Below, piece by piece: positions 35,219-50,174 of a stretch of DNA of 64,000 bases. Source of the DNA: Lachnospiraceae bacterium. Lineage in GTDB: Bacteria > Bacillota > Clostridia > Lachnospirales > Lachnospiraceae. The first letter of the stretch is position 1. Every line of letters begins with the position of its first letter. Both the position numbers and the translations under genes were made by a program. The stretch covers positions 124,001 to 188,000 of the forward strand of contig SVEQ01000003.1 in the NCBI GenBank assembly GCA_015057325.1, written 5' to 3'. The notes under the pieces are model-generated. The model did no database searches and had not been told where the DNA came from. It was given only the letters and a program-made list of their open reading frames with translations.

Positions 35219-35265
35219 TATTAAATCCTCCTATAAAATAAATTATTTAAATGAAACAAAAGAAG

Positions 35266-35287
35266 GTCCGGTCCAATAAGACCGGAC
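35266..35287 (-). terminator. hairpin between gapA and pgk
   Basis: GTCCGGTC pairs with GACCGGAC around CAATAA. On the minus strand a short CCTTCTTTTG tail follows. It may give partial termination so that gapA is expressed above pgk and tpiA. Confidence 0.75.
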
Positions 35288-35321
35288 CCCCGTTAGGTCA
35301 AGTTATTAACTAAAGTTAAAA

Positions 35322-36359
35322 TCAACCAAGCTCGGCGAAGTACTTAATTGTACGAACCATCTGAGATGTGTATGAGTTCTCGTTATCATACCAAGAAACT
35401 ACCTGTACCTCATAGAGATCATCAGCGATCTGGCTAACCATTGTCTGAGTTGCATCGAACAATGAACCAAATCTCATACCGATAACGTCTGAAGATACGA
35501 TAGGATCCTCATTGTATCCGAATGACTCGCTTGCAGCAGCCTTCATTGCAGCATTGATTCCGTCAACTGTAACACCAGCCTTCTTAACAACTGCTGTAAG
35601 GATTGTTGTAGAACCTGTAGGAACAGGAACACGCTGTGCAGAACCGATTAACTTACCATTCAACTCAGGGATAACAAGACCGATAGCCTTAGCAGCACCT
35701 GTTGAGTTAGGAACGATGTTAGCAGCACCTGCACGTGCACGACGAAGGTCACCCTTTCTGTGAGGACCATCAAGAATCATCTGGTCACCTGTGTAAGCAT
35801 GGATTGTGCTCATGATACCACTCTGGATAGGAGCGTACTTGTTAAGAGCATCTGCCATAGGTGCAAGACAGTTTGTTGTACATGAAGCAGCAGAGATAAT
35901 CTTATCATCTGTTGTTAATGTCTTCTCGTTAACTGAGAATACGATAGTCTTAAGATCGTTACCAGCTGGAGCTGAGATAACTACCTTCTTAGCACCTGCA
36001 TCGATATGAGCCTGTGACTTATCCTTTGAGCAGTAGAAACCTGTACACTCAAGTACAACGTCTACATCAAGCTCGCCCCAAGGACAGTTCTTAGCGTCTG
36101 CCTCTGCGTAGATCTTAAGTGTCTTACCGTCAACTGTAATTGTATTAGCATCGTCATCTGCTGAAACTGTGTGAGCACCCTCACCGATCTTTCCGCAATA
36201 TCCGCCCTGAGCTGTATCATACTTGAGCAAATGTGCAAGCATAGAAGGCTTTGTTAAATCGTTGATTGCAACTACCTCATAACCTGCTGCGTCAAACATC
36301 TGACGAAATGCAAGACGTCCGATACGTCCGAATCCATTAATCGCTACTTTTACTGCCAT
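35322..36359 (-). CDS. gapA: glyceraldehyde-3-phosphate dehydrogenase
   Basis: This NAD-dependent enzyme makes 1,3-bisphosphoglycerate. From the ATG at 36359, after AGGAGG, 345 residues are encoded beginning [18 protein letters not shown]. The catalytic Cys is in [15 protein letters not shown] and the partner His in IHAYTGDQ. An in-frame ATG at 36434 lies downstream of the promoter -10 box start region and has no ribosome site, so it is rejected. The gene has its own promoter at 36426-36454. Confidence 0.98.
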
Positions 36360-36425
36360 AGTAAAAATCCTCCTAATAATGTAAATTTCTTTTGTGGCGT
36401 CCTCTCTTTTGACACCCATGCCCCT

Positions 36426-36454
36426 ATCATACATTTTTTGATATTAAAATTCAA
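36426..36454 (-). promoter_or_regulatory. promoter of gapA
   Basis: On the minus strand TTGAAT (36454-36449) and TATGAT (36431-36426) are separated by 17 bases, about 70 bases ahead of the gapA ATG. The promoter faces away from the divergent PHP phosphatase gene. Confidence 0.75.
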
Positions 36455-36542
36455 GAGGAAATTAACAATTTATGGACGTTATTTTCCGCGTATGGTAAAA
36501 TACCCGTATAATAACGTATTTATATGGAAGGAAGGGAATTAT

Positions 36543-37367
36543 ATGATCACGGCAGACTTACACGTTCACTCATCATTTTCATCAGATTCTTCACAATCTC
36601 CCGTTTCTATTATAGAAGAATGTATCAACAAGGGCTTTTCTTATGTATATTTTACGGACCATCACGACATGGATTTTCCGGTTAGCCCCGATAATCCTGA
36701 TATGGATTTCCAGTTAGATTTTGATTCATACATCAAAACTCTTACTAAGTTAAAAGAAGAATACAAAGATAAAATTACGCTGTTAATCGGCGTCGAGCAG
36801 GGAATCTGTCCCGAAGTTGCTCCACGAATATCAGCTCTGTCAAACGCATATCCATTTGACTTTATTATAGGTTCATCACATCTTACCTGCTTATCGGTAA
36901 CTAAGGGTGACCCCTACTACCCTTCATATTATGAAGGCAAGTCATATATCGAAAGCTACCGACAGTATTTTGAATCGGAACTTGAAAATGTGCGCTTAAC
37001 GGACGGCTTTGATGTATACGGTCATCTAGACTATGCAGTACGCTACTGCCCTGACAAGTCCTTTGTATATAACTTTGATGATTACAGAGATGTATTCGAA
37101 GTATTGCTTAAGGAATTGATTTCTCGTGGCAAAGGCATTGAAATTAACACAGCAGGCATAACCAAAATCGGATATCCTCACCCTCACATTGAAGCACTTA
37201 AGCTATATAAGCAATTAGGTGGCGAGATAATCACTGTTGGAAGTGACGCACATGTCAAAGAAAACATTGGCTACGGCTTTGATGTTGCAGAAGATATTTT
37301 AAAATCCTTAGGCTATAACTACTACACAATATTTAAGAACAGAAAACCCGAGTTTTTACCACTCTAG
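36543..37367 (+). CDS. PHP-domain histidinol-phosphatase-like protein
   Basis: From the ATG at 36543, which follows GGAAGGAAGGG, 274 residues are encoded. Metal-binding motifs of the PHP fold are present: DLHVHSSFSSDS at the start, FTDHHDMD, GVEQGI, GSSHLT, and GSDAH near the end. This matches HisK-type histidinol phosphatases, which remove phosphate in the next-to-last part of histidine synthesis, although other PHP phosphoesterases look similar. Its distance from hisF and hisH leaves the substrate open. Confidence 0.85.
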   Translation: MITADLHVHSSFSSDSSQSPVSIIEECINKGFSYVYFTDHHDMDFPVSPDNPDMDFQLDFDSYIKTLTKLKEEYKDKITLLIGVEQGICPEVAPRISALSNAYPFDFIIGSSHLTCLSVTKGDPYYPSYYEGKSYIESYRQYFESELENVRLTDGFDVYGHLDYAVRYCPDKSFVYNFDDYRDVFEVLLKELISRGKGIEINTAGITKIGYPHPHIEALKLYKQLGGEIITVGSDAHVKENIGYGFDVAEDILKSLGYNYYTIFKNRKPEFLPL

Positions 37368-37390
37368 AATAAACATATGGAGGAGTTACA

Positions 37391-38119
37391 ATGAAAGAAC
37401 AGTTATACACTATACCCGTTAATGAGGTATTTGAAAGCGACTGCGAGTGCCCTTTATGCAAAATGAAGGAGCAGCTTGAAAGAAATGCTATCGAATATAC
37501 ACTAGGTCCAAGTTATATGGAAGACGATAATCGTGCCATGACTGATGAAGCAGGCTTTTGTGAAAAGCACATTCAGGCACTTTATGGTGAAAAGAACCGT
37601 TTAGGTCTTGCTTTGATTTTAAGCACACACATGCAAAAGATTAACAAGGATTTAAAAGCCATGACTGATAAGTCTACACCCACAGCGACTTCCCTCTTCA
37701 AGAAAAAAGAGGCTACCCCTATCGGCTCTTATGTAGATAAATTAAAAGACCGTTGCTTTATATGTGAGCGTATGAACGACACCTTTGACAGATACGTCGA
37801 TACAATATTTCATTTATACAAAAAAGACCCTGCCTTTGCAGGCAAGGTCCGTAATTCCAAAGGATTCTGCACTTATCACTTCGCTCTTCTTTATGATAAA
37901 GCACCTGACTTTCTCTCCAAAGAAGCGCTTGATAATTTCATCGCAGATATCAAAAACGTATATTTCTCCAACATGGAACGTATGCAGGAGGATATCGAAT
38001 GGTTTATCAACAAGTTCGATTACCGCTATCAGAACGAGCCTTGGAAAAATTCCAAAGACGCACTGCCACGTGCCATATTAAAAACTCATAGTACGATCAC
38101 TCCTGATTCAAAGGAATGA
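37391..38119 (+). CDS. DUF6062 family protein
   Basis: The 242-residue soluble protein begins MKEQLYTIPVNEVFESDCEC and contains two CxxC-type motifs (CPLCKM near residue 19 and CFICERM near 118) plus FCEKH and FCTYHF, suggesting two related metal-binding halves. This layout matches what I recall as DUF6062 of Lachnospiraceae. Function is unknown. It follows the PHP gene by 23 bases with a GGAGG site and ends back to back with glnS. Confidence 0.72.
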   Translation: MKEQLYTIPVNEVFESDCECPLCKMKEQLERNAIEYTLGPSYMEDDNRAMTDEAGFCEKHIQALYGEKNRLGLALILSTHMQKINKDLKAMTDKSTPTATSLFKKKEATPIGSYVDKLKDRCFICERMNDTFDRYVDTIFHLYKKDPAFAGKVRNSKGFCTYHFALLYDKAPDFLSKEALDNFIADIKNVYFSNMERMQEDIEWFINKFDYRYQNEPWKNSKDALPRAILKTHSTITPDSKE

Positions 38120-39811
38120 TTACTTGTTTGGCTTATAAGAACTCTTAAGCGATACAATTCTGTTAAATACAAGGTTGTCTTCTGTAGAGTCTTTGATGTC
38201 TGTACAGAAGAAACCGTTTCTTAAGAACTGGAAACGTTCACCCTTCTTAGTACCTGCAAATGCAGCTTCTAATTTACAATCCTTTAGTTCAACCAAAGAA
38301 TTAGGATTAAGATTAGAGTAATCTTCATTTAAGACCTCTTCTCCTTCCTTAATAAGATTCTCGTATAATCTTACTGTTGCATCAACACAAGTTGCAGCAT
38401 CTACCCAATGGATAGTTCCCTTAACCTTGCGGCCTTCAAAGCCTGAACCCGACTTAGTTGCAGGATCGTAAGTACAATGAACCTCAACAACCTTACCGTC
38501 AGCATCCTTAACAAAATCAGTACAGGTTACAAAGTATGCATTTTTGAGGCGTACTTCATTGCCCGGGAATAATCTGAAATACTTCTTAGGAGGCTCCTCC
38601 ATGAAGTCATCCCTTTCTATATATAACTCTTTGCTAAATGATACCCGTCTGCTTCCAAGCTCCTCATTCTCCTGATTATTCTCAACATCGAGAAGCTCCG
38701 ACTGTCCTTCAGGATAGTTATCAATCACAAGTTTAATCGGATCAAGTACTGCCATCATACGAGGCGCCTTCATCTTAAGGTCCTCTCTTATACAATACTC
38801 AAGCATTGCCATATCAGAAACTGAGTTAGCTTTAGAAATACCGGAAAGTTCTATGAACATACGGATAGCTTCCGGTGTTACACCCTTTCTTCTAAGTGCG
38901 CTGATTGACACAAGTCTTGGGTCATCCCAACCATCAACTACCTTGTCCTCAACAAGCTTTTTGATATATCTTTTTCCTGTTATTACATTCTGAAGATAAA
39001 GCTTTGCAAACTCAATCTGCTTAGGTGGGAACTCAAACTCAAGCTCATTTACTACCCAGTCATAGAGAGGTCTGTGATCCTCAAACTCAAGTGTACAGAT
39101 AGAATGTGTCACACCCTCAACCGCATCCTCAATAGGATGAGCGAAATCATACATAGGATAAATACACCATTTATCGCCTGTTCTGTGATGACTCATTCTT
39201 GCAATTCTGTATATTACAGGGTCACGCATATTAATATTAGGTGACGCCATATCAATCTTAGCACGAAGAACCTTAGAACCATCAGGAAACTCACCGTTTC
39301 TCATTCTTTCAAAAAGGTCAAGATTCTCCTCGACACTTCTGTTTCTGTAAGGGCTCTCCTTGCCCGGCTCCTTAAGTGTTCCTCTATATTCTCTAATCTC
39401 ATCAGCGGTAAGGTCACACACATATGCCTTGCCCTTTTTGATAAGCTTAATTGCACCCTCATACATTGCATCAAAATAATCTGACGCATAGTATATCTTA
39501 TCGCCAAAGTCAGCACCTAACCACTTAACATCCTCAAGAATCGAGTCAACGAACTCAGACTTCTCCTTTGTAGGATTTGTATCATCAAATCTTAAGTTAA
39601 ATGTTCCCTTGTACTCGCTAGCCAATCCAGAATTAAGGATTATAGACTTTGCGTGTCCGATATGAAGATATCCGTTAGGCTCCGGTGGAAATCTTGTAAC
39701 TATCTCCTTATACTTGCCCTCCGATAAATCCTTATCAATTATCTGCTCGATAAAGTTTCTTGATACTACTTCTTCATTATTCGCTTCAACATTATTGTTT
39801 ATATCACTCAT
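38120..39811 (-). CDS. glnS: glutaminyl-tRNA synthetase
   Basis: GlnRS charges tRNA-Gln directly. The 563-residue class I synthetase has the HIGH motif in [15 protein letters not shown] (about 43-57) and the following [10 protein letters not shown]. The region that aligns with KMSKS reads [15 protein letters not shown], directly before VDGWDDPRL. The C-terminal beta-barrel anticodon domain is complete. I take the second of two adjacent ATGs as start. The gene ends next to the DUF6062 gene and marks the border of the island that begins at 39915. Confidence 0.96.
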
Positions 39812-39914
39812 CATATATTCTCCATTTTTTGATTATAAAATTGCTAAACATTATTATGTTTATAACCTATTATAGTATGATTTGTCAACATAGTTAAAAA
39901 ACAATATACTTTTG

Positions 39915-40964
39915 TCATCTTTTTTCTTTTACTGCTTCATCGGCCAAAACATCCGCCTCATGGTTTCCCACAAATAACGTATGTGTTTTAAATATTTTTT
40001 TACATTCTTCTTCCATCAACGTTATTGGCTTTAAATATTTGTTGACATGAGAATAAATATGCATAAATTTTATTTCAACAGAATGTTCTGAGCAGTATTT
40101 TAAAATTTCATCGAAAAACTGCTTATAAACATGATTAAACTTTTTTTCAGTTGTTTTCATCATATCAGCAAGATACCAAAATACATTTTCATTATCGTGG
40201 CAAATATATCCGTTTTCCCCGGATTCAACAATCCAAAGAGCAGCTTTCATAGATGCAAGAAGTTCAGGAAGTTCATTTCGCTCTTTTTCATATTCACTCA
40301 TTTTCTTTTGTGCATCTTTTAATTTACCAATCAGGTCCTTCCCTTTTTGACCCTTAAGAAAATCAATATCTTTATTCTTCATTATTTTATTCGCGTCTTC
40401 AATAATTGAACTTAGATCTGTTCCTTTAAATTTAATTTCGTCTTTAGAATAAGTTTCATTGTTATCTTTCTTCTTCAGGATATAAACTCCGTACCCAACT
40501 TTATCCACTGAGTGCGAACCATCTGTAAAAATATAGGTATTATTATCATTTCCATCGTATTTTATGGCTTTAAAAGAAATTATACCATCAAAGTTTCCAA
40601 TACCATCCCACACCGAACTTTCACCGTGCATCTTGTTTTCTTCGATGTTTTCAACATATACTACTCGCTTCTTTTGATGAACAATATACGCCCCATCATT
40701 GAGTTCTTTTTCTTCTCCGTCCCATTTTTCCTCTTTATAAGTTTCATTTATAACATCTTCAACAGCAACAATGGCATCTGCTTCGTTATCAAATTTGTAT
40801 ATATCAACGCATTCTTTTGTATGCTCGTAATCCTTAACCATTTTATATTTTTCTAATATTGTTTTTTTATTCTCTCCAGAGATAGCTTTGACTACGCTGC
40901 TGTTAAGAATAAATGTACCCGGAAGGAAAACAAGAATATAACCTTTGGCTTTTTTACAACTCAC
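39915..40964 (-). CDS. RNase H-like nuclease lacking the usual N-terminal hybrid-binding domain
   Basis: The 349-residue protein has an RNase H1 fold in its C-terminal two thirds: the first catalytic Asp in YIFTDGSHS (near residue 148), Glu in NELPELLASMKAALW (near 233), a probable third acid in CHDNENV and the last in GNHEADVLADEA, with the handle-like basic helices between. About 75 extra residues separate the first strand and the Glu. The first 140 residues are unrelated to the hybrid-binding domain normally found there; that domain is instead at the start of the large protease in the same operon. It should cleave RNA in RNA-DNA hybrids. It is the last gene of the seven-gene unit. Confidence 0.82.
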   Translation of the reverse strand: MSCKKAKGYILVFLPGTFILNSSVVKAISGENKKTILEKYKMVKDYEHTKECVDIYKFDNEADAIVAVEDVINETYKEEKWDGEEKELNDGAYIVHQKKRVVYVENIEENKMHGESSVWDGIGNFDGIISFKAIKYDGNDNNTYIFTDGSHSVDKVGYGVYILKKKDNNETYSKDEIKFKGTDLSSIIEDANKIMKNKDIDFLKGQKGKDLIGKLKDAQKKMSEYEKERNELPELLASMKAALWIVESGENGYICHDNENVFWYLADMMKTTEKKFNHVYKQFFDEILKYCSEHSVEIKFMHIYSHVNKYLKPITLMEEECKKIFKTHTLFVGNHEADVLADEAVKEKR

Positions 40965-41021
40965 TGCTCTTATCCTTTTATCTTTTACTCTATTTTTATT
41001 ATATCATTACTCTTCAACAGT

Positions 41022-41249
41022 TTAGGGGTTTAAATATTTAGCAACCATTTTCATTACAAAAGCAGAAACAGCTTTGGTATCATATCCGAGAATATTGTCG
41101 GCTTTTTTCTCTTTGAGGACAGATGTTAAATCATTCAGATTTTCATCGTTAATACACTCTAATAGTAATTTTTTAAGATTGTTTGATGCATAACATTTCA
41201 TCTGGACTGATGCTTTTCTATCCGTAATAGTATAAATAGCCTCTGTCAT
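41022..41249 (-). CDS. 75-residue protein of the island, unknown
   Basis: The product MTEAIYTITDRKASVQMKCY... is short, mixed alpha/beta and soluble, with no motif that I recognise. It lies 57 bases before the RNase H gene and 37 bases after the repeat protein gene, in the same orientation as the whole island, which is the main support for it being real. Confidence 0.6.
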   Translation of the reverse strand: MTEAIYTITDRKASVQMKCYASNNLKKLLLECINDENLNDLTSVLKEKKADNILGYDTKAVSAFVMKMVAKYLNP

Positions 41250-41286
41250 TCTCTGTGTTATCTTCCAGTATTCTCTTCCCCAAGAT

Positions 41287-41505
41287 TCATCCGGTTTTTT
41301 CTTTATTATTATCTATCCATGTTTTGGGTACATAATTTGTATCTATCCATGTTTTGGGTACATAATTTGTATCTCTCACACCCCACCCACGTATTTCTCT
41401 ATTCAACTTAAGTACAGAAATACGGGTGTCGTCTACCCATGATTGGGGAACATTATACAAGTCGGGTATAATCCAGTTATCATTCGTTTTGTTCTTATTA
41501 TTCAT
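41287..41505 (-). CDS. small protein with repeated TNYVPKTWID unit
   Basis: From the ATG at 41505, six bases after GAGGGGA, 72 residues are encoded. The C-terminal third contains TNYVPKTWID twice in a row, and earlier a degenerate copy NVPQSWVDDT. The DNA of the two perfect copies (41311-41340 and 41341-41370) is an exact 30 bp tandem duplication. The protein is small, polar and Trp-rich. It directly follows the large protease gene, so an adaptor, inhibitor or substrate role is possible but unproven. Confidence 0.65.
   Translation of the reverse strand: MNNKNKTNDNWIIPDLYNVPQSWVDDTRISVLKLNREIRGWGVRDTNYVPKTWIDTNYVPKTWIDNNKEKTG
41311..41370. repeat. exact 30 bp tandem duplication
   Basis: Two identical 30-base units lie head to tail and encode ten residues each (TNYVPKTWID) in the small island protein. 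Identity without any change suggests a recent duplication or copy-number change. Confidence 0.9.
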
Positions 41506-41548
41506 CGTCCCCTCCTTTCTGCAAGAACACATAATCAAGTCTACAATA

Positions 41549-44500
41549 TTAATCCATTTTCAACATCAATTCTTCAAATTGCTTTCCTGTTAGTCTATTC
41601 TCCTTTACAAGAACACCTGCAATTTTCTGAATCTTTTCTTTTGCATTTTCTATTATTTCTATCGTGCTCTCCATCTCGGTCTTAAGAATCTCGTTCACTT
41701 TAGCTGTATATTCTCCGGCCAATGCTGATTGAAGCACCTCGTCTTTGGATAAGGTAAGCAATCTGTCATCTTCCATACCATACGCACATACTATTTTGAA
41801 TGCAATATCGGTTGCGTTTTGCAAATCAGCGGAAGCTCCTGTGTTAAGTGACTTTTCTTTACCAAAAAACACCTGTTCAGCTGCACGTCCCGCCAATGAA
41901 GTCCTTATCCTTGCAAGAAGTTCCTCTCTCGTATAATCTGTAACATTCTCCTGATTAGAATGTCTCATATATCCACCAAAAGAACCTCTAGACTCAATCG
42001 TAATATAAGAAGGCTTATCTCCACTAATATATGACACATACGCATGCCCAATCTCATGAATAGCAACACAATTATAATAATCCAAAGTACGCTCTTTCTT
42101 TTCCCCAAACTCATATTCTTCAAGAGCATTTAACAAATCCTCATTCGTCATGTATCTTTCTTTCTTTGCAGCATCATTAAATGCGTTACTAAGCACGTTT
42201 TGTAGATTTGCAATACTCCAACCTGGTGTCCTTTCCGCAATACTATGCACCGTATCTTTGGAAACAGTAGTAATATTCTGTTCTTCAAATCTATTTATGA
42301 TATATTGTTCACGCTCACTCTCATTTGGAAGATCCACGAAAATCTTTTTATCAAAACGCCTAAGCAAAGCCGGATCCAAAGAAGCATTCTCACCTTTTTC
42401 ACCTCTGACCAAAAAGTTTGTTGCAGCCAAAACAAAAACAGGTTTATTGCTGTCAGCAATATTGAAACCATCCATTGCCGTAAGAAGAGCATTCAACATA
42501 CCCTCAGTATGATGAGTGTTTTCTGATCCTGTTCTCTTCTTCCCAATTGCATCAATCTCATCAATAAATATTATGGACGGTGCATATTTTTTTGCTTTTT
42601 CAAAAATACGTCTGATATTCGCCTCGCTTTCACCTGTATATTTACTTTCAAACTCAGTTGCGCTGGTTTGAAGAAAAGTCACTTCAGACTCACCCGCCAT
42701 AGCCCTTGCAAGCATAGTTTTTCCCGTTCCCGGTGGTCCGTAAAGAAGTATTCCTTTCGGTGGTTTAAAACCATTCATAAGGAAACCTTTTGGATTTGTA
42801 AGATATTTTACAAAATACTGAAGTTCTTCTTTAGCCTTCGTTGCACCAATAACATCACTAAATTTGGTATTGGGACGTTCTACATTGGATGGCAATGAAT
42901 TATAATCTTTAAGAGCACTCAACAGGTCATCATCCGTCACAGCCCTTTGCTGCTTCACAGCTCTTCGAACTGCACTTTCAAACATATTTTGAATATCCGC
43001 AAGACTCTGTCCCGAGGTTCTTTCTGCTATTGTCTGCACTGCTTCTTCGGAAACAGTCGTAACGTTCCTAGATTCAAGCAACTTACTTATATATTGTTTT
43101 CTTTCCTGCTCTTTTGGAAGTTCCACAAAAATTGTAGAATCAAAGCGTCTAAGCAACGCCTCATCCAGCATTCCAATTCCATCATTTTCCGCTGTTGCCC
43201 CATAGTTTGTAGCAGCCAGAACAAAGACCGGTTTATCAGCATTAGAACTGTCAAAACCATCCATCTCTGTAAGAAGAGCATTCAACATGCGTTCAGTATG
43301 ATGAGTGTTTTCTGAACCAGTTCTCTTCTTTCCAATTGCATCAATCTCGTCAATAAATATTATAGACGGTGCGTATTTCTTTGCCCTTTTGAAAATTCTT
43401 CTGATATTTGCTTCACTTTCGCCTGAATATTTACTTACAAACTCGGTTGCACTGGTTGCGAAAAATGACACATCCGACTCACCTGCCATAGCTCTGGCAA
43501 GCATAGTTTTTCCTGTTCCCGGACTTCCATAAAGAAGAACTCCCTTCGGTGGTCTGGCACCATAACCAAGAATTTCTTTTGGGTTCATAAGATACTTTAC
43601 AAAATATTGAAGTTCTTCTTTCGCCTTTTCAGCACCAATGATATCACTAAATTTATTTTGGGGGCGATCCACATCCGACAACACCGAATACCTATCTTCA
43701 GTTTCCACGGCTGTTTTTATCTTAAGATCATAGAATTCTATTTTACCCACATTATAGCATTTATCGACAAATCCTTTTCTGGTCTTGTAAGTCAATACCT
43801 GATGTCTACGAGCAAGCTTATCCATTACCTTCTGGCAGGATACATCCCAATAAGCTGCCTCTAACTCATCTTGGTAGAATTCGCTATTAATGAATCCACG
43901 AGCACCTATTTTAATCAGGGCATTTTTCTCTCTTTCAGAATAGTTATACTCTGACTTTTCTCCACACAAGATAAAAATCGGAATATTTCCAAACTCCGCT
44001 GCAGTCTTTTGTAACACATCTTTTCCGACCGTTCTTTCATCTGCAATATTTAAACTACGTTCTGTATTTTCCAATCCAAGTGTAAAATCTATTACTACAA
44101 AGAGAACATTACCGTCATGAAGTATTTCCATAAATGCATCTGAATCGGTTGTATTCTTAACTATGATGCCGTTTTCTTTGAACATATCGGACTGTTTATA
44201 ACGAATATCACCAAGTACAGGAATGACAACATTTTTTTCACCGGAATAAATCTCCTTAACTTCATCGCTTGCATTCGTGAAATCGCACTTCCACTCTATC
44301 TTTTCAATCTTTTCAATAGCATTAGGCAACATCTTTTGCATCATAAGATTTGCAAAGTCATATATTTGCTGATTAATCATTTTCCCTGCCAAAGTGGATG
44401 CATTTCTGGCGTCCGCACTCCCACCCATAGAATAAAGCACCGTCTTCGCCAAGTCGCCCTTTCCACTTCTTAAACTCCAGCCGGATCCACGTTCTGCATT

Positions 44501-46288
44501 TATCAGTTGATTCTCAACGTCCTTTTCAACCACTCTCCTAAGTGCATCCGCCTTCAAATGATTAAACATGATAACTGTATAAGATGACAATCTTGACAGT
44601 ATTTCAGGTGGAAAATATGGACTAAACGTTTTAATGTCGATATCTTTTTGCAATGCATCCAATACCACCTTGTCGGGAAGAACAGTCAAGTTCTCATTTT
44701 GGGCACCACTGTACAGTTGTCTACCGGCATTTGTTGTAAATATTATAATAGTATCTTCAAAAGATATATTACAATCGTAATGACGATCAAAGCAGTGTCC
44801 ATCATCCAAAATCTGCAAAAACAAAGTTATAATCGTTCTATGTGCCTTTTCTATTTCATCAAACAAGAGCACACAGTTTGGATTTGCACTTACATAATCT
44901 GTCAGTACACCCGCTTTAGATTTTTCCCAGAGCGAAGAAATACCAGCTATTTCTTCTATTGAGCCTTCACCCGAGTACCCTGACATATCAAAACGCCTGA
45001 AAGGAATACCCAATTCCTCCGCAAAGAGTTGTGCCATAAAAGTCTTTCCTACGCCGGATGGACCTGCAAACAAGAACACACTCCTCGGTCCTTTTCTTTT
45101 ATTTACAGCATGTGTATTATTTTCCGCGTTAAAAAAACTGCGTTCTAACTTATCGATTGCGTCATCCTGTCCGATAACTTTCTCTTTAAGTTTCATCCCT
45201 ATGGATTCAGTACGCATTACAAGTTGCCTAAAAGATGACTTTGTATCCTTCTCATCTATTCTCTTCTCAAAATCAGGATTAACGTAAGGTCCGGACACTT
45301 TTCTAAGTTCCGGATGGTAAGCACTATTTTCTACCATTTCCCGATATAAGTCACTCAAAGAATGACCACCCTGTTTGATAAACTTTTTCATATGCCTGTA
45401 TGTTGTACAATTGTCATTCAAGAGTTTTTCATTAGTATCCTTTGCAAACAACTCACATCTTTTGGAAAGTTCATCTAAATCGATAGTCTCCATACCATTT
45501 TTTTCAAAACGATTATAAAAGTCACGGTACTCGTCCGATTCTTCCCATGATTCTTTAGCAAAGTTGAGCCATTCCGAAGGCTTTATTGATGGTGGGGTTA
45601 TAGAAATATTTCCACTAGTCATTCTCTTATTAAGCATTTTCCTATATATATCAACAAAACTTTGCAAAACAGACATTGGGTCCAATACAAACTCAACCAA
45701 TTTTGTATATAATGAAGCCACATTATATCTACCCACATAAGGATTATTATCATCAACTACATACAAAAGAATCTCTAACCATGGCTTATTTTGATGTGGC
45801 TGTTCAGGTATATTAAGCAACTCATATATTTCTTCTGGTTCCGGAGGTTGTATATAGCCATCTTCTTGTTCTTCATACTGCATAGCGTTGTCATTGTCCA
45901 TTTTCACTGCTTCAAGCCAACCCGGGTCATCTATATTTCCACTTTGGTCAAAATCACCATTTTCATCCGTATACTGAATGTCGGCTACTCCATATGGAAG
46001 AAAACCTTCATTTTTCCAACTTTCTTCCTCAAGATATTCTTTGTTTTCACCTTGATAAACCAGTTCAAATCCTCCTACCTCATTTGAACTCATATATTCT
46101 TCTGCAAGCGCAAATGCATGACGAAGACTACCCTCTTTGTTTTCATCTTCATTTTCAAGTTCTGTCCTATACTCAATACTGTAAAATAATGCCCCAGAAA
46201 AACCTTTTATCTGTTCTTCGCACTTTTTCCAATCGTCAAAAATTCCGGTTTTTCTTCCCTTTTTTACCAAGTATATTTTCTTTTTCAT
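41549..46288 (-). CDS. giant multi-domain AAA+ protease: hybrid-binding domain, ClpB-type AAA+, receiver-like, two FtsH-type AAA+, M41 peptidase
   Basis: The 1579-residue protein starts with an RNase H1/viroplasmin hybrid-binding domain (KIYLVKKGRKTGIFDDWKKC, residues 4-23, with Q26 and F30). A long acidic region follows. A ClpB-type AAA+ module covers about 385-600 (Walker A GPSGVGKT near 408, Walker B VLLFDEIEKAH). A receiver-like fold lies at about 685-815 (VVIDF, IPIFILCG, GARGF). Two FtsH-type AAA+ modules follow (GSPGTGKT near 921, GPPGTGKT near 1183; both with FIDEIDAIGKKR and LLRRFD). The M41 zinc protease has HEIGH near 1411 and the third ligand Asp in GASADLQNAT. No membrane segment is seen, unlike FtsH. 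All active-site residues appear intact. I know no named family with this order. Confidence 0.9.
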   Translation of the reverse strand: MKKKIYLVKKGRKTGIFDDWKKCEEQIKGFSGALFYSIEYRTELENEDENKEGSLRHAFALAEEYMSSNEVGGFELVYQGENKEYLEEESWKNEGFLPYGVADIQYTDENGDFDQSGNIDDPGWLEAVKMDNDNAMQYEEQEDGYIQPPEPEEIYELLNIPEQPHQNKPWLEILLYVVDDNNPYVGRYNVASLYTKLVEFVLDPMSVLQSFVDIYRKMLNKRMTSGNISITPPSIKPSEWLNFAKESWEESDEYRDFYNRFEKNGMETIDLDELSKRCELFAKDTNEKLLNDNCTTYRHMKKFIKQGGHSLSDLYREMVENSAYHPELRKVSGPYVNPDFEKRIDEKDTKSSFRQLVMRTESIGMKLKEKVIGQDDAIDKLERSFFNAENNTHAVNKRKGPRSVFLFAGPSGVGKTFMAQLFAEELGIPFRRFDMSGYSGEGSIEEIAGISSLWEKSKAGVLTDYVSANPNCVLLFDEIEKAHRTIITLFLQILDDGHCFDRHYDCNISFEDTIIIFTTNAGRQLYSGAQNENLTVLPDKVVLDALQKDIDIKTFSPYFPPEILSRLSSYTVIMFNHLKADALRRVVEKDVENQLINAERGSGWSLRSGKGDLAKTVLYSMGGSADARNASTLAGKMINQQIYDFANLMMQKMLPNAIEKIEKIEWKCDFTNASDEVKEIYSGEKNVVIPVLGDIRYKQSDMFKENGIIVKNTTDSDAFMEILHDGNVLFVVIDFTLGLENTERSLNIADERTVGKDVLQKTAAEFGNIPIFILCGEKSEYNYSEREKNALIKIGARGFINSEFYQDELEAAYWDVSCQKVMDKLARRHQVLTYKTRKGFVDKCYNVGKIEFYDLKIKTAVETEDRYSVLSDVDRPQNKFSDIIGAEKAKEELQYFVKYLMNPKEILGYGARPPKGVLLYGSPGTGKTMLARAMAGESDVSFFATSATEFVSKYSGESEANIRRIFKRAKKYAPSIIFIDEIDAIGKKRTGSENTHHTERMLNALLTEMDGFDSSNADKPVFVLAATNYGATAENDGIGMLDEALLRRFDSTIFVELPKEQERKQYISKLLESRNVTTVSEEAVQTIAERTSGQSLADIQNMFESAVRRAVKQQRAVTDDDLLSALKDYNSLPSNVERPNTKFSDVIGATKAKEELQYFVKYLTNPKGFLMNGFKPPKGILLYGPPGTGKTMLARAMAGESEVTFLQTSATEFESKYTGESEANIRRIFEKAKKYAPSIIFIDEIDAIGKKRTGSENTHHTEGMLNALLTAMDGFNIADSNKPVFVLAATNFLVRGEKGENASLDPALLRRFDKKIFVDLPNESEREQYIINRFEEQNITTVSKDTVHSIAERTPGWSIANLQNVLSNAFNDAAKKERYMTNEDLLNALEEYEFGEKKERTLDYYNCVAIHEIGHAYVSYISGDKPSYITIESRGSFGGYMRHSNQENVTDYTREELLARIRTSLAGRAAEQVFFGKEKSLNTGASADLQNATDIAFKIVCAYGMEDDRLLTLSKDEVLQSALAGEYTAKVNEILKTEMESTIEIIENAKEKIQKIAGVLVKENRLTGKQFEELMLKMD

Positions 46289-46307
46289 AGTGTATCCTCC
46301 GCTTGAT

Positions 46308-46691
46308 TTACTTTTTAACTACAATTAATTTTCGAAATTCTTCATACAAATCAGGGTCATTTGGATTATAATGAACACAACCCAATATATTAGGAATGTT
46401 AAGCCTAAAAGATGAACATACAATAATAGGAATATCAATATTATGCTCCTGTAATTCGGCAATAAATGTTTCGCCTGCAGTATCATCCGGTTTTCCGTTT
46501 GAAAACAGCGGAAATTGCATATCTGATATTATCAAATCATACGGGGTATTGTTCTCTATACTATCTAACACTGAAATCATCGCATCATTCTCACATTCAA
46601 CATAAGTAATATCTGTTATCCCCATCCTGTTTAGAGCTCTTTTAATATTATCATGTTTCATTGGATCGTCTTCTACATTCAGTACTCTCAT
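46308..46691 (-). CDS. stand-alone response-regulator receiver
   Basis: The 127-residue protein is a single receiver domain: acidic pair in NVEDDPMKHDN, phosphorylated Asp in LIISDMQFPLF (near residue 57) and Ser in IIVCSS. The conserved Lys of the last loop is not obvious (HYNPND there). There is no output domain. It overlaps the methyltransferase-like gene by four bases and lies 19 bases ahead of the giant protease gene, which itself has an internal receiver-like fold. It may control the protease as adaptor; no histidine kinase is encoded nearby. Confidence 0.83.
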   Translation of the reverse strand: MRVLNVEDDPMKHDNIKRALNRMGITDITYVECENDAMISVLDSIENNTPYDLIISDMQFPLFSNGKPDDTAGETFIAELQEHNIDIPIIVCSSFRLNIPNILGCVHYNPNDPDLYEEFRKLIVVKK

Positions 46692-47686
46692 TTATTATTT
46701 CCTCTTTTTACTTTATATGAAGCATGGCTAACATTTTGGGGAAGATTTTTGACCGGTTTAAAGTGACCAATCCCCTCAATACCTTCCAACCCAATAATCG
46801 CTCCATAAGCTTTATTATTCGTAATGTTATTATCACCCTTCCATGCCGGCATTACCGATTGTAAACGGGGCGTTTGGGGATATTTGTCAAATGGTTCTTT
46901 TTCAATATTAGGATATTTGCTTATTATTTTTTTTATCTTATCATTATCTTTGACCGATTTATGTCCCGTAATAATAATATATGTTGGGTCTATTTTATTC
47001 AAAACCCGTATAATATCATTTTTATTCTGTTCAATCAATTCGTTGAAAGAACTTGGGAAGAAAACTACATCTGCTTTAATGTCTTCTTTGGATTTATCTA
47101 TTATTTTAAAGAAATTTCCTTCCGTTTTTCCAATATTTAAAGCAATATTATCCTTAGGAATTCGGAATCGAGAATCTTCCTTTATTTTCATTGGTCTTTT
47201 CCATTTATTATACTCGTAAGCACGATACTTAATATTTTTAATAGCATCTACATCCCATTTTTCCATATACAACGCTGATTCCAGTCCCCAATAATCCACG
47301 TAGTTACCAGCACCTATCGAATCAATCGTTAACCCATTTTTTTTCACATAGTCTTCTCCTATTTCTTGCAACAATTTTCGATAAATATGATTAAAATGCT
47401 GCGAATACGCATATGCATACTTTACATTATAAACATTATCATAATTTTTATCTTCATATATAGATTCACTTCGCTCACCCTCATTTGAAAGTTTTCCTAT
47501 TCCTTTACTGGCAATATTTTTCAATTCATTTAAATTTTCTTTTCTTAGTTTAATCACATTATTATATGCTTCACCAATAAAACCTTCGTGTTTAATTTCA
47601 CCTTCTTTGTCTTTATAACGATAATACATTACCTTTTGAAGTTCTTCTCTTATTTTTAATTGATCATTATTTTTTTCTTTTGCCAT
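46688..47686 (-). CDS. methyltransferase-like protein of the island
   Basis: From the ATG at 47686, 332 residues are encoded; an upstream TTG at 47713 is less likely. The central part has LTIDSIGAGNYVDYWGLESA, which resembles the SAM-binding loop of class I methyltransferases, then ADVVFFPSSFNELI and LNKIDPTYIIITGHK, resembling later strands of that fold. The N-terminal 110 residues are helical and charged. The catalytic motif is not clear, so a non-enzymatic Rossmann protein cannot be excluded. The gene is the second of the seven-gene unit. Confidence 0.6.
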   Translation of the reverse strand: MAKEKNNDQLKIREELQKVMYYRYKDKEGEIKHEGFIGEAYNNVIKLRKENLNELKNIASKGIGKLSNEGERSESIYEDKNYDNVYNVKYAYAYSQHFNHIYRKLLQEIGEDYVKKNGLTIDSIGAGNYVDYWGLESALYMEKWDVDAIKNIKYRAYEYNKWKRPMKIKEDSRFRIPKDNIALNIGKTEGNFFKIIDKSKEDIKADVVFFPSSFNELIEQNKNDIIRVLNKIDPTYIIITGHKSVKDNDKIKKIISKYPNIEKEPFDKYPQTPRLQSVMPAWKGDNNITNNKAYGAIIGLEGIEGIGHFKPVKNLPQNVSHASYKVKRGNNK

Positions 47687-47705
47687 AATAGTATATTCCC
47701 TTTTC

Positions 47706-48662
47706 TTAATCAAATTTAAATGTTAACTGTTCCATCTGTTTTTCTGTTTTATAAGATTTCACCGGACGTTCAGTAATCTTATCTCCAACCTTTTGGCTAA
47801 CAGTACCACATAGTATCGGAGATGATATATCGTATTTTCTTGCATTCTCTCTAACTACTGCTTCTCGATAGTTTGCATAACAATACTTACATCCATGAAG
47901 ACAGGTATCGAACGCCCCCATCTCATCGCACTTAACACATCGACATTCACTGCGTTGTCCGTCCGGACCAACCTTTAATTCATAACCAATAATAGACTCT
48001 ATCAGATTCTTATCAATGCAACTGTTATGCTCGATACCACAAAATGACAAATCAATTTTTTCTGCGCAGGTTCCAACAACCATACCGTTATCCTTTGCTA
48101 TTTCTGCCAAACTTTTAGCAAATTGATTAATTGCGTCATTTGATATTTCTTTATAATGAATATCATTCATATTGCTCATGTTCTTAGACGTGTATATATC
48201 TACAAAACTAATCACACATTTCTTCGTAAAGCCCTTTAATTGCTCAGCTACTTCTTTGAACCGTTTCAGATGATACTCTGTGGTATATTCATAAGAAAAA
48301 ATTATTGGATCATATCTCCATATAACTCTATCCTGTCCAATTTTATCGGATAGATTTTGAAATGTTTCTATAAGTTCGTGCAAGTCAGGAACATGCGGTT
48401 CCATCTCTTTTCCATATCCCGTAATTGTATATTGAAAGTAATATTTGTATGCCTCCAATTCATTCAATCTTGCAAGCATCGGTTTAGGGTTCTTTGTCCA
48501 GAATACAATACAATCCACCACATCCGGTTTTATATTAACCTTACTAATTTGGCGTGTATTCATCGGATTTCTAACCATATAGAAACCCTCGCTTATCCTT
48601 TTATAAAACCATTCAGAAAAAAAAGCAGGAATATCTGTTCTTCGGCTAACACTTAATATCAT
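47706..48662 (-). CDS. DUF1848 family protein (radical-SAM-like with C-terminal Cys cluster)
   Basis: The 318-residue protein begins MILSVSRRTDIPAFFSEWFY and has VFWTKNPKPM, DRVIWRYDPIIF and a C-terminal Cys cluster (CRCVKCDEMGAFDTCLHG, then CKYCYANY), all typical of DUF1848. Members are thought to hold an Fe-S cluster and to resemble radical SAM enzymes; the reaction is unknown. It is the first gene of the island operon, 19 bases ahead of the methyltransferase-like gene. Confidence 0.88.
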   Translation of the reverse strand: MILSVSRRTDIPAFFSEWFYKRISEGFYMVRNPMNTRQISKVNIKPDVVDCIVFWTKNPKPMLARLNELEAYKYYFQYTITGYGKEMEPHVPDLHELIETFQNLSDKIGQDRVIWRYDPIIFSYEYTTEYHLKRFKEVAEQLKGFTKKCVISFVDIYTSKNMSNMNDIHYKEISNDAINQFAKSLAEIAKDNGMVVGTCAEKIDLSFCGIEHNSCIDKNLIESIIGYELKVGPDGQRSECRCVKCDEMGAFDTCLHGCKYCYANYREAVVRENARKYDISSPILCGTVSQKVGDKITERPVKSYKTEKQMEQLTFKFD

Positions 48663-48754
48663 ATTTTGATTCCTCCTTTATGAATTGCATACTTCTAATC
48701 ATTCAAAACAAATTTAATAATTATAACCCATACTATTTTACCATAAAAAAAAGA

Positions 48755-48788
48755 AAGAGGAAATTTTTATTAACAAAAATTTCCTCTT
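48755..48788 (-). terminator. terminator after tRNA-Thr
   Basis: GAGGAAATTTTT (48757-48768) pairs with AAAAATTTCCTC (48775-48786). On the minus strand a TTTCTTTTTTTT tail follows. It lies 13 bases beyond the tRNA 3' end and separates it from the island. Confidence 0.88.
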
Positions 48789-48800
48789 TATAAACAAGAA

Positions 48801-48873
48801 AGCTAGCGACGGGAATCGAACCCGTGACCTCCTCACTACCAATGAGGTGCGCTACCGACTGTGCCACGCCAGC
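48801..48873 (-). tRNA. tRNA-Thr (anticodon GGT)
   Basis: On the minus strand the acceptor GCTGGCG pairs with CGCTAGC (one G-U pair). The anticodon stem CCTCA/TGAGG holds the loop TTGGTAG, giving anticodon GGT for threonine ACC/ACT. The T arm is CGGGTTCGATTCCCG. CCA is not encoded after the discriminator T. The 3' end faces the island at lower coordinates. Confidence 0.95.
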
Positions 48874-48940
48874 TTGTCTTTGCGACTTGTCTATAATATC
48901 AAAATAACCCTTGTTTGTAAAGAATATTTTTCAATTATAT

Positions 48941-49555
48941 TTAATTTTCTGTAATGGGATAAATTGTCTTTAATTTCTCCCTGATTCTTGATATTGCATT
49001 GTCGATTGACTTCGTTGATTTCCCAAGTTTTGCTGCAATATCATTATAAGAAAGTCCCTCAAGATACATCGGAAGAACTGCCTGCTCCATCTTACTTAAT
49101 CGTGACGTCAAGAGCTCATTTACTCTTAAGACATTTTCCTTATTAAGAATTACATGCTCAGGATCTGAACTTCTGTCAGCCTCAAGATTCTCAATAAGCT
49201 CAATATCACTTTCGCCGGAAGAAGCATAGATTGAAATGTAACTGTTAAGAGGACTGTGTTTTTCTCTGTTGGAAGCTTTGATTGCGGTATATATCTGTCT
49301 CTTAATACAAAGCTGTGCAAATGTAAAAAATGACGCATTGTTGTCTTGCTTGAAACTTTGTATAGCCTTAAACAGGCCTATCATTCCCTCCTGTGTCAGA
49401 TCCTCGGAATCAGCACCTATTAAGAAAAGTGTTCTTGTTGATTTGACAACCAAAGGCGAGTACTTCTTAATCAGATATTCTGTTGCTTCTTCATTACCGT
49501 TTCGTATTTCATCAATTAACTGTTCATCTGTTAAGATATCATAGTTTGAAGTCAT
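48941..49555 (-). CDS. sigH: RNA polymerase sigma factor of SigH type
   Basis: The 204-residue sigma factor has region 2 (LIKKYSPLVVKSTRTLFLIG, EDLTQEGMIGLFKAIQSF and FFTFAQLCIKRQIYTAI) and region 4 (LSYNDIAAKLGKSTKSIDNAISRIREKLK). This is the SigH/sigma-30 form that starts sporulation and transition-phase genes in Bacilli and Clostridia. In many Firmicutes it follows cysS-mrnC-rlmB; here two other genes lie between rlmB and sigH. Confidence 0.9.
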   Translation of the reverse strand: MTSNYDILTDEQLIDEIRNGNEEATEYLIKKYSPLVVKSTRTLFLIGADSEDLTQEGMIGLFKAIQSFKQDNNASFFTFAQLCIKRQIYTAIKASNREKHSPLNSYISIYASSGESDIELIENLEADRSSDPEHVILNKENVLRVNELLTSRLSKMEQAVLPMYLEGLSYNDIAAKLGKSTKSIDNAISRIREKLKTIYPITEN

Positions 49556-49568
49556 AATTAGCTTTCCT

Positions 49569-50096
49569 TTACTGGACAGGTGTTGCGTCTATAGGTATCT
49601 CCTCTGTTGGTGCTTCTGTCGGAGCTTCTGTTGCGGGTGCTTCCGTTGTTGCTTCTGTTGGTGCCTCTGTTGCAGGCGCTTCTGTTGCCGGTGCCTGTGT
49701 TGTTTGTTGTTCCTCTGTATTCTTTTTATCTTTCTTCTTTTTCGAGGAATCCTCATTTACCTTCTTGGTAATATCCTCGATACTTTCTTCAAATTGTTGT
49801 TGCTCTGTTGTCTGTGTCGTAGCATCAGCCTTCTTCTCTGTACTATCGTCTTTCTTAAAAAAACTTTCCGCTGTTGTTGCTTCGGTTTTCTCACGCTTTT
49901 TACTCGTTTCTCCAACGCTGTTGGCAATTATAGTTATAAATCCAAGAAGTAGACATGCTATTGCAATTACAAACAATATCATAAGAATTGTCTTTAACAT
50001 ATCTCTTGGAGGAATGCTATTGTCAACTGAAGCGCTGTTTTCAAGATCAATTTTTTTCTGCTCTGCCTTTTCTTCCTTCTTATTCTCTTTTTTCAT
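49569..50096 (-). CDS. membrane protein with Thr/Glu/Ala/Pro-rich repeats
   Basis: The 175-residue protein has a Lys/Glu-rich start, one membrane segment (ILMILFVIAIACLLLGFITII, about 37-57) and an outer part that becomes a low-complexity repeat of TEAPATEAP type (about 130-170). Such tails often span the wall. No domain is recognised. It lies 13 bases ahead of sigH. Confidence 0.7.
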   Translation of the reverse strand: MKKENKKEEKAEQKKIDLENSASVDNSIPPRDMLKTILMILFVIAIACLLLGFITIIANSVGETSKKREKTEATTAESFFKKDDSTEKKADATTQTTEQQQFEESIEDITKKVNEDSSKKKKDKKNTEEQQTTQAPATEAPATEAPTEATTEAPATEAPTEAPTEEIPIDATPVQ

Positions 50097-50174
50097 ATAT
50101 ATTAAGTCCTTTCATAGTCATCGCAAACTCCACATATAATACAACAAAAAGCATTAATTGGCAAATCAAAAATC

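What the first reader, a model, noticed from the sequence alone, without database searches (positions are those of the whole stretch)
41549..46288. A 1579-residue protein fusing an RNA-DNA hybrid-binding domain to three AAA+ modules and an M41 protease
The sequence shows YLVKKGRKTGIF...W..C..Q at the N-terminus (RNase H1 hybrid-binding/viroplasmin type), a ClpB-type AAA+ module, a receiver-like fold, two FtsH-type AAA+ modules and an HEIGH zinc protease with its third ligand. FtsH normally has one AAA+ module and membrane helices; here there are none. The plan suggests a soluble machine that recognises hybrid or double-stranded nucleic acid and then unfolds and degrades proteins. I know of no described family with this order. 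Function is inference.
Basis: partly seen in the sequence, partly recalled or inferred. Interest (0 to 1): 0.92.

Follow-up and report, generated by a model that had tools for sequence, protein, structure and literature searches.

The report
Hybrid-binding AAA+ protease with RNase H
A bacterium carries, on a small mobile-looking island, a giant protein-shredding machine with an RNA-DNA-hybrid-binding head, next to an RNase H; relatives with the same parts suggest a machine that finds RNA-DNA hybrids and removes both the RNA and nearby proteins.

Summary
Gene 41549-46288 (-) encodes 1579 residues: RNase H1-type hybrid-binding domain (HBD, Pfam E 5e-11), an unnamed helical domain, a ClpA/ClpB-type AAA+, a receiver-like domain, two FtsH-type AAA+ and an M41 protease, with no membrane helix. 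Eight such proteins, the window's included, lie in seven loci. The second FtsH module is a tandem duplication in 3 of 8. RNase H is present at 6 of 7 loci and is fused to the protease C-terminus in L029 (Pfam E 1e-36). The window genes form a 7-ORF array on an 8.9-kb island (39849-48791) at a tRNA-Thr, absent with contiguous flanks from a same-genus genome. Three HBD-less relatives of the chassis show no RNase H in the stretches fetched. Best reading: a horizontally moving AAA+ protease/RNase H system aimed at RNA-DNA hybrids, probably for conflict with foreign elements. Architecture and RNase H linkage are shown; hybrid binding, proteolysis and defence are inferred. Two lysines that I recall as hybrid contacts are absent from the large-protein HBDs, which weakens the binding claim. 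Eight paper searches found no description.

The parts
39849..48791 (.). 8.9-kb island holding all the genes below; absent, with contiguous flanks, in same-genus genome G1359 (L050)
   Evidence: blastn: window 34192-39848 = L050 1-5653 (91.7%), window 48792-50111 = L050 5654-7009 (83.4%); GC 0.349 against 0.402/0.386 in flanks
48800..48874 (-). tRNA-Thr (ggt); the island begins 8 bases beyond its 3' end (the tRNA is outside the island)
   Evidence: ARAGORN, junction
41549..46288 (-). 1579-aa soluble HBD / helical / ClpA-D2-type AAA+ / receiver-like / FtsH AAA+ x2 / M41 protease
46178..46279 (-). hybrid-binding domain, residues 4-37
   Evidence: Pfam Cauli_VI E 5.1e-11; RNase H1 chains in PDB
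45254..45835 (-). helical domain, residues about 152-345, no Pfam family for residues 38-400; shared by 7 of the 8 large proteins (not L025B)
   Evidence: alignment A3; all-helical in AlphaFold2 model, medium-low confidence
44585..45085 (-). ClpA/ClpB-type AAA+ (AAA_2), residues 402-568; Walker A, B and Arg566 kept
   Evidence: Pfam E 1.3e-42, invariant columns
43859..44170 (-). receiver-like domain, residues 707-810; Asp734 invariant in 8; no acidic pair in the first strand (degenerate)
   Evidence: hhalign 94%, E 1.4e-7; A4
43121..43540 (-). first FtsH-type AAA+, residues 917-1056
   Evidence: Pfam, motifs
42332..42751 (-). second FtsH-type AAA+, residues 1180 to about 1319, 68% identical to the first
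41567..42070 (-). M41 zinc protease, residues 1407-1574, HEIGH 1411-1415, Asp1488
   Evidence: Pfam E 2.7e-27
39915..40964 (-). RNase HI-type protein (349 aa, with an insertion; DGS, E, D and HEAD motifs), start codon GTG as listed
   Evidence: profile built without it: E 1.6e-6; the 19 Foldseek hits with E <= 0.001 are RNase H or foamy-virus RNase H/RT structures, best E 2.6e-5, on a weak model; Pfam alone did not see it
41022..41249 (-). 75-aa ORF, C-terminal half of the small helical partner found at all 7 loci
   Evidence: tblastn 32-53% identity at L023, L024, L025, L027, L028, L029
41287..41538 (-). 83-aa ORF with 30-base repeats (NYVPKTWID), resembling by eye the N-terminal half of the partner; L023 and L029 have one ORF of 128-129 aa here
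   Evidence: no Pfam family
46308..46691 (-). stand-alone receiver protein (127 aa), 19 bases upstream of the protease gene
   Evidence: Pfam 5.8e-7, 0.1 bit under cut-off; 36% to the receiver upstream of the L028 protease
46688..47713 (-). 341-aa protein of unknown family overlapping the receiver gene; a relative in 1 of the 5 other family genomes searched (G013, on another contig, 30%)
47706..48662 (-). DUF1848 protein overlapping the previous gene; accessory, not in the stretches fetched for the other loci
   Evidence: Pfam 3.7e-105

Best explanation
A mobile, operon-encoded machine directed at RNA-DNA hybrids. The HBD of the large protein, and of its small partner where that carries one, docks on RNA-DNA hybrid (an R-loop or a primer). 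The ClpA-type ring and the FtsH-type ring(s) of the hexamer thread proteins found there (a stalled RNA polymerase, a replication initiator or other invader-bound protein) into the M41 chamber, while the linked RNase H removes the RNA. The receiver-like domain and the stand-alone receiver protein act as adaptor or switch, as RssB does for ClpXP. The most likely use is clearing or blocking replication or transcription of invading DNA. Shown: domains, motifs, constraint, RNase H linkage including one fusion, island and empty site. Inferred: ligand, substrate, hexamer, defence role.
For: HBD above Pfam cut-off in the window and Pfam-matched in 7 of 7 N-termini scanned; the eighth large protein (L023) lacks it, but an HBD-like gene (E 0.08, below cut-off) lies upstream. 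M41 in all 8. RNase H at 6 of 7 loci: Pfam over cut-off at L024 (3.7e-6), L025 (7.8e-26) and L029 (1.3e-36, fused to the protease), below cut-off at L027 and L028, and by profile and fold only in the window; none found at L023 or in the stretches of 3 HBD-less chassis loci (4.4, 14 and 19 kb). HBD and RNase H in one gene at L024, L027, L028. Walker and HEXXH motifs in all 8; dN/dS at most 0.24 in 6 pairs. Island with empty site at a tRNA. Restriction-modification genes beside two loci: two methylases and a NOV_C protein at L023, a HpaII-type endonuclease inside the cluster at L028. Precedent: HBD+RNase H fused to the RNase LS toxin family was read as aiming at RNA in DNA-RNA duplexes (PMC3710099, passages read). 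RssB, an atypical response regulator, delivers substrate to ClpXP (PMC7226468, start of abstract in listing).
Against: The human HBD residues that I recall as K59/K60 are Tyr/Ser in the window; 5 of 7 large-protein HBDs have no Lys/Arg at either place; the recalled W43 and an aromatic at F58 are kept in all 7. At the other 5 loci I recognised no restriction or other known defence gene, though not every neighbour was scanned. The best PADLOC hits of the window protein are other AAA+ families such as IetA and TRIP13. No relative in viral contigs; none over 80% of the query in phages or plasmids. AlphaFold2 confidence was low for HBD and receiver-like parts. The small receiver gene at L024 is broken by a stop and none was seen at L023, L025 and L029. 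The window's small partner is split into two ORFs.
Confidence: 0.42

Rival explanations
1. Self-directed R-loop and transcription-replication conflict repair: the machine strips stalled RNA polymerase from the host chromosome and RNase H clears the RNA. It is a useful stress gene that spreads on islands, not a defence system.
For: Same biochemistry as the best reading; HBD+RNase HI is an ordinary enzyme in these bacteria (own second-site copy in L003, Pfam 1.7e-21 and 1e-11; 60 further genomes of 250 in the family match only within residues 1-86, mostly in ORFs of about 200-250 aa).
Against: Patchy distribution (large protein in 2 of 250 family genomes, own included), island with empty site, restriction-modification genes at two loci.
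Confidence: 0.23
2. General protein quality control: a soluble Clp-FtsH hybrid for aggregates, as in ClpK/FtsH heat-resistance islands; the HBD and receiver-like domain serve as protein-protein adaptors.
For: Chassis occurs without HBD, and without RNase H in the stretches fetched, in G740, G1294, G1320; clpK and ftsH lie near each other on a plasmid (KY416992, with cls between) and an AAA ATPase and ftsH on others; an HBD can bind a protein (P32 on human RNase H1, PMC3750045, passages read); the recalled Lys contacts are lost.
Against: Does not explain RNase H at 6 of 7 loci and its fusion to the protease in L029.
Confidence: 0.2
3. Toxin-antitoxin or abortive logic: the protease degrades an inhibitor (perhaps the small partner) to release RNase H or another effector (PLD-like, DUF488, phosphatase) when infection is sensed.
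For: Small partner at all 7 loci; variable accessory genes: DUF5710 with PLDc at L025 and L028 (PLDc below cut-off at L028), calcineurin-like phosphatase at L024, L027, L028, DUF488 at L027. RnlB antitoxin requires RNase HI to restrain RnlA (PMC5308261, title and start of abstract in listing).
Against: RNase H alone is not a toxin known to me; accessory genes are not constant.
Confidence: 0.12

Closest known systems
FtsH / HflB (M41 AAA protease)
   Same: FtsH-type AAA+ followed by M41 with HEXXH and a downstream Asp
   Different: No membrane helix; one to two FtsH modules behind a Clp-type AAA+; HBD; NCBIfam FtsH_fam score 556 under its cut-off of 600
RNase H1 (HBD + catalytic domain)
   Same: HBD at the N-terminus; RNase H in cis (L029) or in trans
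   Different: An AAA+/protease of over 1000 residues lies between the two halves or replaces the second
RNase LS / RnlA family with HBD-RNase H N-terminus (PMC3710099, passages)
   Same: HBD+RNase H joined to a conflict effector in bacteria
   Different: Effector there is a HEPN RNase, here a protease
FtsH-containing MoxR-vWA ternary conflict systems (PMC7159879, passages)
   Same: Protein with two FtsH-type AAA+ domains in predicted conflict systems
   Different: There the first FtsH domain is inactive and MoxR/vWA partners define the system; here both have intact Walker motifs and the partners are RNase H and HBD proteins
ClpK/FtsH loci on plasmids (heat-resistance islands, name recalled; nearness)
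   Same: Clp-type unfoldase encoded near an FtsH
   Different: Separate genes; no HBD or RNase H under the matches listed
HBD-less Clp/receiver-like/FtsH-M41 chassis (G740, G1294, G1320; no name found)
   Same: Same order AAA_2, middle region, FtsH AAA+, M41 (M41 not seen in G740, whose contig ends)
   Different: N-terminus Clp-N-like by eye in G740 (Pfam E 0.16, below cut-off), unnamed in G1294, absent in G1320; no RNase H in the stretches fetched; G1320 middle region does not match receivers

Membership tests
FtsH | Score over NCBIfam FtsH_fam TIGR01241 cut-off (600) | tested here: not met
   556.4 bits
FtsH | N-terminal membrane helices | tested here: not met
   maximum hydropathy 1.32
FtsH | M41 with HEXXH and downstream Asp ligand (ligand recalled) | tested here: met
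   HEIGH 1411, Asp1488 invariant
RNase H1 | N-terminal hybrid-binding domain | tested here: met
   Cauli_VI E 5.1e-11, 3bsu E 4.6e-5
RNase H1 | RNase H catalytic domain in the same protein | tested here: not met
   none in residues 38-400 or 569-916 of the window protein nor in the families shown for the whole (25 of 59); separate gene 39915-40964; fused in L029 (E 1.3e-36)
RNase H1 | binding of RNA-DNA hybrid | not testable with these tools
   recalled K59/K60 positions are Tyr/Ser; recalled W43/F58 positions kept
ClpA/ClpB | NCBIfam ClpB (1232) or ClpA (993) cut-off | tested here: not met
   111.5 and 182.6 bits
IetA/IteA anti-phage ATPase | NCBIfam NF042959 cut-off (510) | tested here: not met
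   255.4 bits
MoxR-vWA-FtsH ternary systems | first FtsH domain lacks P-loop and Walker B | tested here: not met
   both modules have Walker A and B
MoxR-vWA-FtsH ternary systems | MoxR and vWA genes in the operon | tested here: not met
   none among Pfam hits (E <= 1) of the six other ORFs of the island
RnlA / RNase LS | HEPN RNase domain | tested here: not met
   none in residues 38-400 or 569-916 nor among the 25 of 59 families shown for the whole protein; no dedicated HEPN search
Response-regulator receiver (internal domain) | profile similarity to receivers | tested here: met
   94%, E 1.4e-7; reversed 0.5%; Pfam alone below cut-off
Response-regulator receiver (internal domain) | full phosphorylation site (acidic pair, Asp, Thr/Ser, Lys; recalled) | tested here: not met
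   Asp734 kept, no acidic pair at strand 1 and no matching Lys seen by eye in A4

The most novel reading that the evidence does not exclude
A new class of bacterial immune or conflict machine: an ATP-dependent protease directed to its place of action by RNA-DNA hybrids, which destroys the RNA strand and the attached proteins of foreign R-loops or replication primers together; in effect RNase H1 with a Clp-FtsH protease built into it, swapped onto a wider soluble Clp/receiver/FtsH-M41 chassis.
Probability: 0.35. Interest if true: 0.9.

Novelty: new variant of a known kind. Interest (0 to 1): 0.72.

Why it matters
If true, it would be the first case known to me of a protease targeted by a nucleic-acid hybrid, joining RNA removal and protein removal in one machine. 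It would offer a testable bacterial answer to how protein-blocked R-loops are cleared, and a compact new candidate defence operon. The soluble Clp/receiver/FtsH-M41 chassis is itself of interest for AAA+ proteolysis.

Tried and rejected
The G321 hit (E 4.7e-4) was read and rejected: no AAA+ or protease motif by eye in the 3.2 kb shown. Two viral-contig scans found no relative. tblastn in plasmids and phages gave no place over 80% of the query; the features named under the listed matches are Clp, ClpK, ClpL, TssH, AAA or FtsH genes, or none. The idea of one ancient duplication of the FtsH module was tested by a tree; it did not resolve (7 of 8 inner branches open). AlphaFold2 of residues 1-878 was too weak (pLDDT 49.6) to settle HBD or receiver-like folds and was not fold-searched; the RNase H model is weak too (49.8; 84 of 349 residues at 70 or more). 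The first receiver comparison was wrong because 11 of the 20 receiver loci were translated on the wrong strand; it was discarded and redone. One search failed on syntax, redone. One search was read out of frame and not used. The 341-aa neighbour and DUF1848 are not part of the conserved core. Locus L026 was dropped from all counts as the same contig as L024. Whole-genome searches are lower bounds: searches scored only the best 2-3 candidates per genome at strict thresholds, and one search finds close relatives only.

Full report
Observation. Residues 4-37 match the RNase H1 N-terminal domain (Cauli_VI, E 5.1e-11); phmmer of residues 1-75 against PDB sequences returns three distinct sequences, all RNase H1. 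Then follow a helical stretch without a Pfam family (residues 38-400), AAA_2 (402-568), a receiver-like stretch, AAA at 917-1056, a second FtsH-type AAA+ with Walker A at 1184, and Peptidase_M41 (1407-1574). All three Walker A and B motifs are intact, HEIGH is at 1411 and Asp1488 is invariant in three sequences. No 19-residue segment exceeds hydropathy 1.32.

Receiver-like domain. Alone it scores only E 0.061 in Pfam. A profile of 11 relatives against 22 receivers (20 of the 66 found in the own genome, plus the window's and L028's small receivers) gives probability 94%, E 1.4e-7; reversed sequences give 0.5%. By sub-set: window clade 92%, all but L029, L023 and G1320 95.5%, G1294 alone 49%, G740 alone 33%, but L029+L023 0.7% and G1320 0.1%, so in those members it is diverged or something else. 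Asp734 aligns with the phosphorylated Asp, but the acidic pair is missing, so I call it degenerate.

Relatives. Residues 1-350 were searched in 250 genomes of the same family: 62 match; 60 of them only within residues 1-86 (the HBD, mostly in ORFs of about 200-250 aa); the large protein itself is in 2 of 250, own and G013. The own genome has a second copy on contig C9. A pattern scan of 84,980 species genomes gave 5 loci, L025-L029; L026 is the G013 contig (same length, same matches) and was dropped. Thus I compare 7 loci with 8 large proteins: window, L023 (own C9), L024 (G013), L025 (two proteins), L027, L028, L029. Record titles of the five loci say Lachnospiraceae (3) or Clostridia (2). 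The linker profile hit 2 of 392 genomes of the order, own and one false hit G321.

What varies. The HBD is matched by Pfam in 7 of 7 N-termini scanned; L023 lacks it but has an HBD-like gene (E 0.08) upstream. M41 is present in all 8. The FtsH module is double in window, L024 and L028, single in the other 5; the two copies of one protein are 68, 80 and 77% identical, and the tree does not resolve whether they arose once. In L025 the second large protein has the small partner domain in place of the long helical domain. dN/dS is 0.108-0.242 in the 6 pairs computed, the 0.108 with saturated dS.

RNase H. The gene downstream of the protease in the window (39915-40964) gets no Pfam RNase H match, but a profile of six other RNase H sequences (five of the loci and the own RNase HI) finds it at E 1.6e-6. 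Its model is weak overall (49.8; 84 of 349 residues at 70 or more), yet all 19 Foldseek hits with E <= 0.001 are RNase H or foamy-virus RNase H/RT structures, best E 2.6e-5. RNase H is also at L024 (Pfam 3.7e-6, fused to an HBD), L027 and L028 (fused to an HBD; Pfam 2.2e-4 and 6.5e-5, below cut-off), L025 (stand-alone, 7.8e-26) and L029, where it forms the C-terminus of the protease protein itself (1.3e-36). The family profile finds none at L023 and none in the stretches of three HBD-less chassis loci (4.4, 14 and 19 kb, a small control). The fusion in L029 is the strongest evidence that protease and RNase H act together.

Other partners. The small helical partner is at all 7 loci (in L025 within the second large protein). 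In the window it is two ORFs, while L023 and L029 have one; whether the window version works is open. A small receiver protein precedes the protease in window, L027 and L028, is broken by a stop in L024, and was not seen at L023, L025, L029. A calcineurin-like phosphatase is at L024, L027, L028; a DUF5710 protein with PLDc at L025 and L028 (PLDc below cut-off at L028); DUF488 at L027; a HpaII-type endonuclease at L028; two DNA methylases and a NOV_C protein at L023. Not every neighbour at every locus was scanned.

Island. In same-genus genome G1359 (glutaminyl-tRNA synthetase 96% identical) the window flanks are contiguous: window up to 39848 is followed by window from 48792. The missing 8.9 kb holds exactly the seven ORFs of the array, all on the minus strand, overlapping or at most 57 bases apart (coordinates). 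It starts 8 bases from the 3' end of a tRNA-Thr (ggt). No 10-base direct repeat is shared by the 100-base stretches at the two ends, and no integrase is among the Pfam hits shown for the island ORFs. GC is 0.349 against 0.402 and 0.386. Two other same-genus genomes also have the synthetase within about 1.5 kb of a sigma-gene relative without the array (L051, L052). The other loci lie beside other genes by eye, so the system probably moves.

Chassis. Wider profiles found AAA_2, middle region, FtsH AAA+, M41 without HBD in G740 (the only hit besides own in 398 phylum genomes; contig ends before any M41), G1294 and G1320 (the only hits besides own in 391 class genomes; M41 E 1.4e-33 and 6.4e-29). 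These searches scored only the best 2-3 candidates per genome, so the counts are lower bounds. The machine body is thus wider than the HBD version.

Function. HBD plus RNase H at the same loci, once in one chain around the protease, makes RNA-DNA hybrid the likeliest ligand. Against it: the residues that I recall as K59 and K60 of human HBD are Tyr/Ser in the window; 5 of 7 large-protein HBDs have no Lys/Arg at either position, though Trp and the aromatic are kept in all 7, and 2 of 3 small-partner HBDs keep an Arg. The HBD of the large protein may therefore bind weakly, or prefer dsRNA, or bind a protein, as P32 binds human RNase H1 (PMC3750045, passages). Precedent for HBD+RNase H in bacterial conflict is the RNase LS family (PMC3710099, passages). 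Precedent for two FtsH-type AAA+ in conflict systems is PMC7159879 (passages), where the first copy is dead; here both look active. The defence reading rests on mobility, patchiness and restriction neighbours at 2 of 7 loci; it is not proven.

Verdict. A real, constrained, probably mobile and, as far as eight paper searches show, undescribed combination of known domains. I rate it a new variant of known kinds (AAA+ protease; RNase H1), with a fair chance of being a new class.

Noticed in passing
41287-41538 and 41022-41249 (-): The small partner is two ORFs in the window but one ORF in L023 and L029; the first ORF contains a 30-base repeat (NYVPKTWID).
   Followed up: partly
L025:9515-19219: Two paralogous HBD-AAA-M41 proteins of different type lie in tandem around an RNase H and a PLD-like/DUF5710 gene.
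   Followed up: partly
L028:15108-16292: A HpaII-type restriction endonuclease gene sits inside the protease/RNase H cluster; a matching methylase was not looked for.
   Followed up: no
L023:1560-5739: EcoRI-type and C5 DNA methylases, a NOV_C protein and an unknown 318-aa protein follow the second copy in the own genome.
   Followed up: partly
46688-47713 (-): 341-aa protein without a family; by eye a stretch DSIGAGNYVDYWGLESAL recalls a methyltransferase.
   Followed up: no
47706-48662 (-): DUF1848 protein with a CLHGCKYCYAN motif that looks like a radical-SAM cluster (by eye); PADLOC has a model RTasDUF1848.
   Followed up: no
L042:1374-2315: Beside the HBD-less chassis in G1294 lie two small proteins, one weakly YbjN-like (E 0.006, below cut-off).
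   Followed up: no
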